Positions 46,232 to 48,013 of a stretch of DNA of 64,000 bases are shown one piece after another. The position numbers and the translations under genes are program-made. The stretch covers positions 4,990,070-5,054,069 of the forward strand of contig NZ_KI911782.1 in NCBI RefSeq assembly GCF_000515395.1. The letters are read 5' to 3'. The first letter of the stretch is position 1. The number at the start of each line of letters is the position of its first letter. Under the pieces are notes generated by a model. That model was given only the letters and a program-made list of their open reading frames with translations. It did not search any database and was not told the origin of the DNA. The stretch is from Jiangella gansuensis DSM 44835 (lineage in GTDB: Bacteria; Actinomycetota; Actinomycetes; Jiangellales; Jiangellaceae).

Positions 46232-46516
46232 TCAGCCGCCGGCGACCGCCGGGATGACCGACACCTTGGTTCCGTCCGGCGTCGCCGTCTGCAGGCCGGA
46301 GGCGAACCGGACGTCGTCGTCGTTCACGTAGACGTTGACGAAGCGGCGGATCTGGCCGGTGTCGTCGAGGACCCGCGCGCCGATACCCGGATACTGGGCG
46401 TCCAGCGCCGCGAAGACGTCGGACAGCGTGGCGTCGGCCGCGACGTCCACGGTGACGTCGGACTCGCCCTTGGTGTAGGTGCGCAGGATGGTCGGAACGC
46501 GTACCGCAACGCTCAT
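46232..46516 (-). CDS. MoaD/ThiS-family sulfur carrier protein
   Basis: 94-residue beta-grasp protein (VAVRVPTILRTYTKGESDVT, LDAQYPGIGARVLD) ending in the diglycine VIPAVAGG. That terminus is adenylated and thiocarboxylated by an E1-like enzyme so that the protein donates sulfide. CysO of Mycobacterium and HcyS-type carriers have the same design. It is encoded three bases after the threonine-synthase-like gene in the same SAM-riboswitch-controlled transcript, which points to sulfur delivery for an amino acid rather than molybdopterin or thiamine synthesis; no moa or thi genes are near. Confidence 0.85.
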   Translation of the reverse strand: MSVAVRVPTILRTYTKGESDVTVDVAADATLSDVFAALDAQYPGIGARVLDDTGQIRRFVNVYVNDDDVRFASGLQTATPDGTKVSVIPAVAGG

Positions 46517-46519
46517 GGC

Positions 46520-47767
46520 TCAGCCTCCGTTGACGAGGCGGTGGAATGCCTCGGTAGTGGGTTCGATCGTGCCCGCCGGCCCGACAACCGGCGAGACGGC
46601 GTCGAGCGTCTTCAACCCGTCGCCGGTGTTGAAGACGACGGTCTCCGCCTCCGGGTCGAGCTTGCCCTCACGCAGCAGCTTCGCCAGGACGGCGACGGTG
46701 ACACCGCCGGCGGTCTCGGCGAAGATGCCCTCGGTGCGGGCCAGCAGCCGGATGCCGTCGACCACCTCGTCGTCGCTGACGTCCTCGACCGCGCCACCGG
46801 TGCGCCGGGCGACGTCGAGGACGTACGGGCCGTCAGCGGGGTTGCCGATGGCCAGCGACTTCGCGATGGTGTCCGGACGGACCGGGCGGACGACGTCGTG
46901 GCCGGCCTTGAACGCCTCGGCCACCGGCGAGCAGCCGGTCGCCTGCGCGCCGAAGATGGCTGGTGCGTCGCCCTCGACGAGGCCGAGTTGCACGAGCTCA
47001 CGGAAGGCCTTGTCGACCTTGGTCAGCTGCGAGCCGCTGGCCACCGGGATGACCACCTGGCGGGGCAGCCGCCAGCCCAGCTGTTCGACGGTCTCGTAGC
47101 CGAGCGTCTTGGAGCCCTCGGCGTAGTACGGGCGCACGTTGACGTTGACGAACGCCCAGTCGTCGTGCTCGCCGGCCAGCTCGGAGGCGAGCCGGTTGAC
47201 GTCGTCGTAGTTGCCGTCGACGGCAACGAGCGTGGTGCCGTAGACGGCGCTGGTCACGATCTTGGGCTGTTCGAGGTTGCTCGGGATGAACACGAAGCTG
47301 CGGATGCCCGCGCGGGCCGCGGCGGCGGCAACGGCGTTGGCGAGGTTGCCCGTGGACGGACAGGCCAGCACGGTGAAGCCCAGCTCGCGGGCCGCGGCGA
47401 GCGCTACAGCGACCACCCGGTCCTTGAACGAGTGGGTCGGGTTGGCGGCGTCGTTCTTGATCCACAGCGCCCGTAGACCCAACTCGCGAGCCAGGTTGTC
47501 CGCGCGCACCAGCGGGGTGAAACCGGGATCGGTGTTCGGGGTGTCCGCCACGTCGGCCGGCACCGGCAGCAGGTCGCGGTAGCGCCAGATGGAGCGGGGC
47601 CCGCTCTCGATGCGCTCGCGGGTGATGGTGCCGTAGTCGTAGGCGACCTCCAGCGGCCCGAAGCACTCCAGACAGGCGTAGTGCGGCCCGAGCTCGACGG
47701 TCGCGCCGCACTCACGACATGACAGGTGCGTGGCGCGTCCCAAGGAGGTGGCGGTGGTGACGGTCAT
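46520..47767 (-). CDS. thrC: threonine-synthase-like PLP enzyme (possible homocysteine synthase)
   Basis: 415-residue fold-type II PLP protein. An N-terminal four-cysteine motif (Cys17, 20, 32, 35; SCRECG and ACLECFG) precedes the catalytic core with THSFKDRVV (PLP lysine near 113), ACPSTGNLANAVAAAAAR and VASGSQLTKVDKAF. By sequence it would be called threonine synthase (O-phosphohomoserine to threonine). The SAM riboswitch just upstream and the ThiS-like sulfur carrier just downstream fit better with a sulfide-using reaction on O-phosphohomoserine or a related ester to give homocysteine. AGAAGGG before the ATG touches the riboswitch P1 stem. Confidence 0.85.
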   Translation of the reverse strand: MTVTTATSLGRATHLSCRECGATVELGPHYACLECFGPLEVAYDYGTITRERIESGPRSIWRYRDLLPVPADVADTPNTDPGFTPLVRADNLARELGLRALWIKNDAANPTHSFKDRVVAVALAAARELGFTVLACPSTGNLANAVAAAAARAGIRSFVFIPSNLEQPKIVTSAVYGTTLVAVDGNYDDVNRLASELAGEHDDWAFVNVNVRPYYAEGSKTLGYETVEQLGWRLPRQVVIPVASGSQLTKVDKAFRELVQLGLVEGDAPAIFGAQATGCSPVAEAFKAGHDVVRPVRPDTIAKSLAIGNPADGPYVLDVARRTGGAVEDVSDDEVVDGIRLLARTEGIFAETAGGVTVAVLAKLLREGKLDPEAETVVFNTGDGLKTLDAVSPVVGPAGTIEPTTEAFHRLVNGG

Positions 47768-47778
47768 GCGAGATCCCT

Positions 47779-47902
47779 TCTCATCTCTCCCACCGGGTCG
47801 CGGCGGGCCGGAGTTGGCACCGTCGTCGCACGTGGCCCAGGGCCTCGCGCGGACGGTTGCCGGAGCTTCATCGGGCCGGTCCCTCAGCTCCTCTGGATGA
47901 GG
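47779..47902 (-). promoter_or_regulatory. SAM riboswitch (SAM-I/SAM-IV clan)
   Basis: Minus strand, upstream of the threonine-synthase-like gene. The conserved core is clear: CTCATCCAGAGGAGC, GAGGGACCGGCCC, GATGAAGCTCCGGCAACC, then after a variable arm GGTGCCAACTCCGGCCC and the closing GAGATGAG that pairs with CTCATC (P1). These are the joining and kink-turn sequences of the SAM-I/SAM-IV aptamer. The P1 3' strand ends 13 bases before the start codon and abuts the AGAAGGG ribosome site, so SAM binding probably blocks translation. SAM-I and SAM-IV cannot be separated without folding the 3' pseudoknot. Confidence 0.9.
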
Positions 47903-47951
47903 ACAACTGGCCGCCACTGTACGTGGGACGGCACGACAGCAGCATCGCTAG

Positions 47952-47987
47952 TCCGCGATGCGAGACATTTTTGTCTCACATCGCGGA
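47952..47987. terminator. hairpin with a T-loop downstream of the Doc-type toxin
   Basis: TCCGCGATGCGAGACA (47952-47967) and its complement (47972-47987) form 16-bp arms with one mismatch and a TTTT loop. It lies between the 3' end of the minus-strand Doc gene (48014) and the riboswitch start, and so isolates the thrC-like transcript. Confidence 0.75.
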
Positions 47988-48013
47988 TGTATGCGGTGTG
48001 CGGTGCGACGACG

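What the first reader, a model, noticed from the sequence alone, without database searches (positions are those of the whole stretch)
46232..47902. SAM riboswitch controls a threonine-synthase-like enzyme and a ThiS-like sulfur carrier: candidate protein-thiocarboxylate homocysteine pathway
Seen: a well-conserved SAM-I/IV aptamer ends 13 bases before the ATG of a ThrC-like gene, and three bases after that gene comes a MoaD/ThiS-like protein ending in Gly-Gly. Known: SAM riboswitches control methionine/SAM supply; CysO and HcyS carriers deliver sulfide as C-terminal thiocarboxylates. Inference: this 'threonine synthase' is a homocysteine (or related thiol) synthase that uses O-phosphohomoserine or another homoserine ester plus the carrier. 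A SAM-repressed real threonine synthase would be hard to explain.
Basis: partly seen in the sequence, partly recalled or inferred. Interest (0 to 1): 0.9.

Follow-up and report, generated by a model that had tools for sequence, protein, structure and literature searches.

The report
SAM-riboswitch MetM/MetO homocysteine synthase operon

Summary
On the - strand lie a SAM-I riboswitch (47903-47778, 78.6 bits), a ThrC-like gene (47767-46520) and, three bases on, a ThiS/MoaD-type carrier ending in Gly-Gly (46516-46232). A canonical hom-thrC-thrB operon lies elsewhere in the genome. The window enzyme sits in a separate, well-supported clade in which residues constant in ThrC are changed. 0 of 81 such loci have hom or thrB nearby, 71 of 80 have a carrier beside the enzyme and 64 of 80 a SAM riboswitch. 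In its genus 12 of 12 genomes have riboswitch and gene, but only 5 of 12 have MetX and MetY. One prediction failed: this genome does have metY-metX and metB. The idea is not new: Hasebe et al. 2024 reported MetM (ThrC-like) with carrier MetO making homocysteine from O-phosphohomoserine in Streptomyces (paper not held; recalled), and passages of a citing paper say that metM there has an upstream SAM riboswitch. Verdict: new member of a known kind. Extras: a predicted translational switch, patchy co-existence with MetX/MetY, and Nitrospirota clusters with cysM- and moeB-like genes and often a JAMM protease.

The parts
47778..47903 (-). SAM-I riboswitch aptamer (RF00162), the only one found in the genome
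   Evidence: 78.6 bits, gathering score 44.4; single hit; 150 of 290 candidates scored
47774..47782 (-). Shine-Dalgarno-like stretch GAGAAGGGA that overlaps the 3' strand of aptamer helix P1: predicted translational expression platform
   Evidence: sequence; folding with P1 forced or forbidden (prediction only); no terminator-like site in 47700-48000
46520..47767 (-). metM-like gene: PLP-dependent, ThrC-like, probable homocysteine synthase, 415 aa, with an N-terminal CxxC...CxxC stretch
   Evidence: clade; residue signature
46232..46516 (-). metO-like gene: ThiS/MoaD/CysO-type sulfur carrier, 94 aa, C-terminus AVAGG
   Evidence: adjacency elsewhere; 50% identical to the other CysO-type carrier of the genome

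Best explanation
The locus is a SAM-repressed metM-metO operon. MetO is adenylated and thiocarboxylated at its C-terminal Gly-Gly, most likely by the MoeZ (ThiF plus rhodanese) encoded elsewhere in the genome. MetM, a PLP enzyme of the threonine synthase family, takes O-phosphohomoserine (the product of homoserine kinase ThrB), eliminates phosphate and adds the sulfur of MetO-thiocarboxylate to give homocysteine. MetH or MetE methylates this to methionine, and SAM made from methionine closes the loop by binding the riboswitch. Here SAM binding most likely stabilises helix P1, which overlaps the ribosome-binding site, so control is probably of translation. Shown by computation: the parts, their conservation, the separate clade and the presence of the supporting genes. 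Inferred: substrate, sulfur donor, which protein loads the carrier, SAM binding and the switch mechanism.
For: Riboswitch, enzyme and carrier in tandem. Separate canonical hom-thrC-thrB operon. Tree of 70 rows: the 35 MetM-like rows are one side of a branch (SH-aLRT 100), the 30 ThrC rows another (100). Residues, 82 MetM-like against 30 ThrC rows, T. thermophilus numbering: R160 is Y in 82 of 82, N188 S in 82 of 82, T88 L in 82 of 82, N157 R in 82 of 82, Q164 S in 82 of 82, S155 N in 81 of 82; K61 and S84-T85-G86-N87 are kept in 82 of 82. Context: 30 of 30 ThrC loci have thrB and 28 of 30 hom; 0 of 81 MetM-like loci have either in the fetched flanks. Riboswitch upstream in 64 of 80 loci (recounted) and, among 40 genomes, directly upstream of the second ThrC-type match in 32 of the 32 with a riboswitch over the cut-off. 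Carrier beside MetM in 71 of 80 loci. MetX and MetY both not found in 7 of 12 genus genomes and in 20 of the 31 good-quality genomes that have MetM. MoeZ present, 731.1 bits, cut-off 647; two MetH over the cut-off and one strong MetE-type match. Literature: passages of PMC12172450.
Against: This genome also has metY-metX (781.7 bits, cut-off 703; 549 bits, cut-off 475) and metB (668.3, cut-off 513), so MetM/MetO is not its only predicted route. Curated models call the enzyme threonine synthase (TIGR00260 over its cut-off) and the carrier a ubiquitin-like modifier. A cyanobacterial relative, 51.6% identical to S. albulus MetM and next to a metO-like gene, was reported to act as threonine synthase and deaminase; with a sulfur source it gave only an unidentified peak near methionine (passages of PMC12172450). 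7 of 80 loci with about 2.9 kb or more downstream have no carrier found nearby, and in 5 of 32 genomes none was found adjacent, one of them with MetM at a contig end. 16 of 80 loci have no riboswitch. The tree program warned that the ThrC and MetM stems are long branches that may join falsely. In the unconstrained fold P1 forms even without ligand. No S. albulus MetM sequence was available to align. No assay.
Confidence: 0.9

Rival explanations
1. A second, SAM-regulated threonine synthase (or bifunctional threonine synthase/deaminase) with an unrelated carrier gene beside it.
For: Over the curated threonine synthase cut-off. The cyanobacterial relative was reported as threonine synthase/deaminase (passages).
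Against: A canonical thrC sits with hom and thrB in the same genome. Residues constant in 30 of 30 ThrC rows are changed in 81 or 82 of 82 MetM-like rows (that several of them touch the substrate in ThrC is recalled). SAM control and an adjacent sulfur carrier are hard to explain for threonine supply. 0 of 81 loci lie beside hom or thrB.
Confidence: 0.05
2. A carrier-dependent synthase of a different thiol amino acid, or of homocysteine from another homoserine ester.
For: The carrier is 50% identical to the genome's CysO-type carrier. MetM-like proteins lack the ThrC arginine at T. thermophilus position 160, so phosphate recognition would have to be rebuilt.
Against: A mec-cysO-cysM-type cluster already exists. 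SAM riboswitches regulate methionine and SAM supply (general knowledge). In 21 of 32 genomes with MetM neither MetX nor MetY was found, so O-acetylhomoserine is probably lacking there; MetA was not searched. Hasebe et al. reported O-phosphohomoserine for MetM (recalled).
Confidence: 0.04
3. A relic: since the genome carries metY-metX, MetM/MetO is redundant and decaying here.
For: metY-metX and metB present.
Against: Reading frames, riboswitch, active-site lysine and Gly-Gly end are intact. 98% identical to the J. asiatica protein. metY-metX is the patchy component: 5 of 12 genus genomes, in another gene order here than in the other four.
Confidence: 0.01

Closest known systems
MetM/MetO of Streptomyces albulus (Hasebe et al. 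2024, Appl Environ Microbiol 90:e01247-24)
   Same: ThrC-like PLP enzyme, sulfur carrier gene, upstream SAM riboswitch (from passages of PMC12172450; that metO is directly downstream and the chemistry are recalled from the abstract).
   Different: This genome also has MetX-MetY; many Streptomyces are said to lack the canonical genes (recalled). The sequences could not be compared directly.
CysO-CysM-Mec (M. tuberculosis; recalled)
   Same: Same carrier family; the window carrier's best PDB match is 3dwg_C; MoeZ as likely activator.
   Different: The partner enzyme is ThrC-like, not CysM-like, and lies behind a SAM riboswitch; a separate mec-cysO-cysM-type cluster exists in this genome.
HcyS with a MetY-type sulfhydrylase of Wolinella succinogenes (recalled)
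   Same: Homocysteine from a protein thiocarboxylate.
   Different: That enzyme is of the Cys/Met metabolism PLP family and uses O-acetylhomoserine; this one is of the PALP (fold type II) family.
Canonical threonine synthase ThrC
   Same: PALP family and PLP site; 36% identity to the genome's own ThrC.
   Different: Separate clade, changed conserved residues, N-terminal extension, no hom or thrB neighbours.
Microcystis aeruginosa ThrC (PMC12172450, passages read)
   Same: MetM homologue next to a metO-like gene.
   Different: No SAM riboswitch; reported as threonine synthase/deaminase.

Membership tests
MetM/MetO homocysteine synthase | ThrC-like PLP enzyme outside the canonical ThrC clade | tested here: met
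   35 MetM-like rows on one side of a branch, SH-aLRT 100 (quick tree, long-branch warning); residue signature
MetM/MetO homocysteine synthase | Adjacent ThiS/MoaD-type carrier with a Gly-Gly end | tested here: met
   a carrier lies beside the enzyme in 71 of 80 loci
MetM/MetO homocysteine synthase | Upstream SAM riboswitch, as stated for S. albulus | tested here: met
   statement on S. albulus
MetM/MetO homocysteine synthase | Converts O-phosphohomoserine plus MetO-thiocarboxylate to homocysteine | not testable with these tools
   needs an enzyme assay
MetM/MetO homocysteine synthase | Groups with the characterised S. albulus MetM by sequence | not tested
Canonical threonine synthase | Groups with ThrC and lies with hom or thrB | tested here: not met
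Canonical threonine synthase | Residues S155, R160, N188, T88 (T. thermophilus numbering; role in substrate binding recalled) | tested here: not met
   one-residue insertion in this loop of MetM, so the pairing of S155, N157 and R160 depends on the alignment
Canonical threonine synthase | Curated model TIGR00260 over its cut-off | tested here: met
   279.7 bits, cut-off 167.1; this model does not separate the two groups
SAM-I riboswitch RF00162 | Match to the covariance model above the gathering score | tested here: met
SAM-I riboswitch RF00162 | Binds SAM and represses | not testable with these tools
   needs in-line probing or a reporter
CysO-CysM system | Carrier encoded with CysM and Mec | tested here: not met
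   these lie at L019 with another carrier

The most novel reading that the evidence does not exclude
In this lineage MetM/MetO is the core, SAM-controlled homocysteine route and MetX/MetY a patchy addition taken up more than once. Where metO is missing beside metM, the CysO carrier serves both cysteine and homocysteine synthesis, so that one thiocarboxylate pool would feed both, as the Nitrospirota clusters of cysM-like, moeB-like, metM, metO and JAMM genes suggest.
Probability: 0.35. Interest if true: 0.45.

Novelty: new member of a known kind. Interest (0 to 1): 0.3.

Why it matters
It supports, by comparative genomics, that many actinobacterial genes named threonine synthase are probably homocysteine synthases: the curated model TIGR00260 accepts this one over its cut-off. 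Correct naming would fill apparent methionine gaps in genomes without MetX/MetY, and the residue signature offers a simple way to tell the two apart. As a discovery it was anticipated in 2024.

Tried and rejected
Real threonine synthase: set aside on the second thrC, the clade and the residue signature. Missing metB/metY as proof for this genome: tested and false; replaced by the genus-wide pattern. A CysO-CysM pair: set aside, since a separate mec-cysO-cysM-type cluster exists.

Literature. Searches: MetM and O-phosphohomoserine (2 papers), SAM riboswitch with threonine synthase and actinobacteria (1 paper), thiocarboxylate/homocysteine/threonine synthase/phosphohomoserine (21 papers, 20 listed), ThrC active site (259 papers, 10 listed), MetM with MetO (1 paper), threonine synthase with ThiS/MoaD (70 papers, 15 listed; 'ThiS' also matches the word 'this'), citations of the 2024 paper (2 papers, one by chance). 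Of all these I opened only PMC12172450, and read passages of it; the rest I saw as listings. The residue roles in T. thermophilus ThrC are recalled.

Limits. The 80 loci are the best 80 of 290 relatives found from patterns of the window protein, so they lean to near relatives and Streptomyces is not named among them. MetX was counted at E 1e-50 with TIGR01392, whose own cut-off no genome reached (0 of 40); this genome's MetX passes NF047917 instead. Riboswitch searches in genomes scored only part of the first-look candidates. In one search MetM was counted as a second match over the cut-off directly downstream of a riboswitch; G036 (partial second match) and G028 (second match, 189 bits) were not counted. 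Of the 80 loci 33 went into the tree and all 80 into the residue count. Five further proteins in the tree (L003, L004, L165-L167) include the long branches that the program flagged and carry no weight here. MetA was not searched and no structure was predicted. The terminator scan found a site in L065 but none in L057, whose loop seems too long for it, and none in the window.

Full report
What is there. The - strand carries, in order, a SAM-I riboswitch at 47903-47778 (RF00162, 78.6 bits, gathering score 44.4), an open frame from ATG 47767 to 46520 coding a 415-aa ThrC-like PLP enzyme (TIGR00260 279.7 bits, cut-off 167.1; Pfam PALP 245.1 bits) and, three bases on, a 94-aa ThiS/MoaD-type protein at 46516-46232 that ends in AVAGG (PF02597 55.1 bits). 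The carrier's best PDB match is 3dwg_C (85 bits), from memory M. tuberculosis CysO; it also passes the NCBIfam model for ubiquitin-like modifier SAMP1 (64.4 bits, cut-off 60). The enzyme's best PDB matches are threonine synthases (189 bits for the first).

Where it is. The window lies in a single-contig genome of 5.59 Mb, 99.93% complete. I take it for a Jiangella because the closest named record is J. asiatica, 98% identical in the enzyme. The riboswitch is the only RF00162 match found in the genome (150 of 290 candidates scored).

The second threonine synthase. A canonical hom-thrC-thrB operon lies at 1.56 Mb (L001; homoserine dehydrogenase 545 bits, ThrC 288.7, ThrB 191.7, each over its cut-off). 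The two ThrC-type proteins are 36% identical. In a quick tree of 70 rows the 35 MetM-like rows are one side of a branch (SH-aLRT 100) and the 30 ThrC rows another (100); the program warned that both stems are long. All 30 ThrC loci have thrB and 28 of 30 have hom in their flanks; 0 of 81 MetM-like loci have either (flanks up to 3-4 kb, shorter at contig ends).

Residue signature. In an alignment of 82 MetM-like and 30 ThrC proteins with T. thermophilus ThrC as ruler, the PLP lysine K61 and the STGN motif are kept in 82 of 82. S155, N157, R160, Q164, N188 and T88, constant in the 30 ThrC rows, have become N (81 of 82), R, Y, S, S and L (82 of 82 each). MetM has a one-residue insertion in the 155-160 loop, so the pairing there depends on the alignment. 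From memory several of these positions touch the substrate in ThrC; no structure was examined. A rebuilt pocket would fit an enzyme that must admit a sulfur nucleophile in place of water; that is inference.

Conservation of the unit. One scan of named genome contigs gave 80 loci, the best of 290 (L023-L102). A SAM riboswitch lies upstream in 20 of 20, 16 of 20, 19 of 20 and 9 of 20, 64 of 80 in all; of the 16 without, 12 are Nitrospirota and two (L059, L062) start about 110 bases or less before the match. A carrier was found beside the enzyme in 71 of 80; of the nine without, two are near a contig end and seven have about 2.9 kb or more downstream. Nonomuraea gerenzanensis shows the same three parts. 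Among 40 genomes (own plus relatives) the riboswitch is over the cut-off in 32, one per genome, each time directly upstream of the second ThrC-type match (read off the tables). A carrier match is adjacent in 27 of these 32; in one of the other five (G025) MetM lies at a contig end.

The other route. Across relatives the pattern still favours the reading. In the genus 12 of 12 genomes have riboswitch and MetM, 5 of 12 have MetX and MetY, and in 7 of 12 neither was found. Of 35 good-quality genomes 31 have MetM: 20 with neither MetX nor MetY, 10 with both, one with MetY only. Of the four without MetM three have both and one (G031) has none. MetA was not searched. In this genome metY precedes metX, while in the other four of the genus metX precedes metY, which suggests separate origins.

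Supporting genes. MoeZ (ThiF plus rhodanese; 731.1 bits, cut-off 647) is encoded at L103. Two MetH over the cut-off and one strong MetE-type match are present. A JAMM protease, a CysO-type carrier and a CysM-type enzyme form a separate cluster at L019; its carrier is 50% identical to the window's. In the 12 Nitrospirota loci a CysM-type enzyme and a MoeB/ThiF-type protein were found in 12 of 12 and a JAMM protein in 9 of 12, as expected for a thiocarboxylate carrier.

The switch. The Shine-Dalgarno-like stretch 47782-47774 overlaps the 3' strand of helix P1. With P1 enforced, G47780, G47776 and G47775 are unpaired with probability 0.01, 0.04 and 0.11; with P1 forbidden 0.66, 0.87 and 0.88. The last two are covered not by P1 itself but by a short hairpin that forms beside it, and the unconstrained fold already contains P1, so the model shows two possible states, not a proven switch. 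No terminator-like site was found in 47700-48000. In L065 one lies between aptamer and gene; in Solirubrobacterales loci such as L057 a similar repeat with a T run is visible in the sequence, but the scan, which limits the loop, did not report it.

Known or new. Hasebe et al. 2024 (Appl Environ Microbiol 90:e01247-24) described MetM and the carrier MetO; the paper was not held, and I recall its abstract: O-phosphohomoserine plus thiocarboxylated MetO gives homocysteine. Passages of PMC12172450 say that Hasebe et al. identified the homocysteine synthase MetM, that a gene similar to metO belongs to the sulfur carrier family and that S. albulus metM has an upstream SAM riboswitch. The same paper reports a cyanobacterial relative acting as threonine synthase and deaminase, which is the main published caution. 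I therefore file the locus as a new member of a known kind, with confidence 0.9 in the MetM/MetO reading.

Noticed in passing
L079, L086-L088, L091, L096-L102 (12 Nitrospirota loci): MetM and carrier lie with a CysM-type enzyme (12 of 12), a MoeB/ThiF-type protein (12 of 12) and a JAMM protein (9 of 12), without a SAM riboswitch; one carrier may serve both cysteine and homocysteine synthesis.
   Followed up: partly
carriers beside MetM in L033, L034, L036, L040, L041 (GG-Cys) and others: 13 of 71 carriers have one or two residues after Gly-Gly (C 5, A 3, SP, Q, SI, R, RR), 56 end in GG, two could not be read to the end; the extra residues would need trimming before activation. The CysO-type carrier of this genome ends GG-Ser.
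   Followed up: no
L065 2517-2539; L057, L058, L060, L061, L069, L077 after the aptamer: A terminator-like repeat with a T run lies between SAM aptamer and gene (reported by the scan in L065; seen by eye in the others; not reported in L057), where Jiangella and Nocardioidaceae have the Shine-Dalgarno right after P1: different expression platforms on one gene family.
   Followed up: partly
G000 C1:2953508-2966716 (L011): A second metH lies about 7 kb from the metY-metX pair; gene order differs from that of four genus mates, suggesting a separately acquired methionine cluster.
   Followed up: no
window 46520-47767: The curated threonine synthase model TIGR00260 accepts MetM over its cut-off (likewise Nonomuraea, 270.2 bits), so automatic annotation will probably misname it.
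   Followed up: yes
G023 C11:83813-83948: A weak SAM riboswitch match (41.1 bits, below the cut-off) about 3.5 kb upstream of a MetY gene in a genome where no MetM was found.
   Followed up: no
L073 and L076: A contig titled Bifidobacterium breve MAG carries a carrier protein identical to that of an uncultured actinobacterium from a lake-type sample name; the title may be mis-assigned.
   Followed up: no
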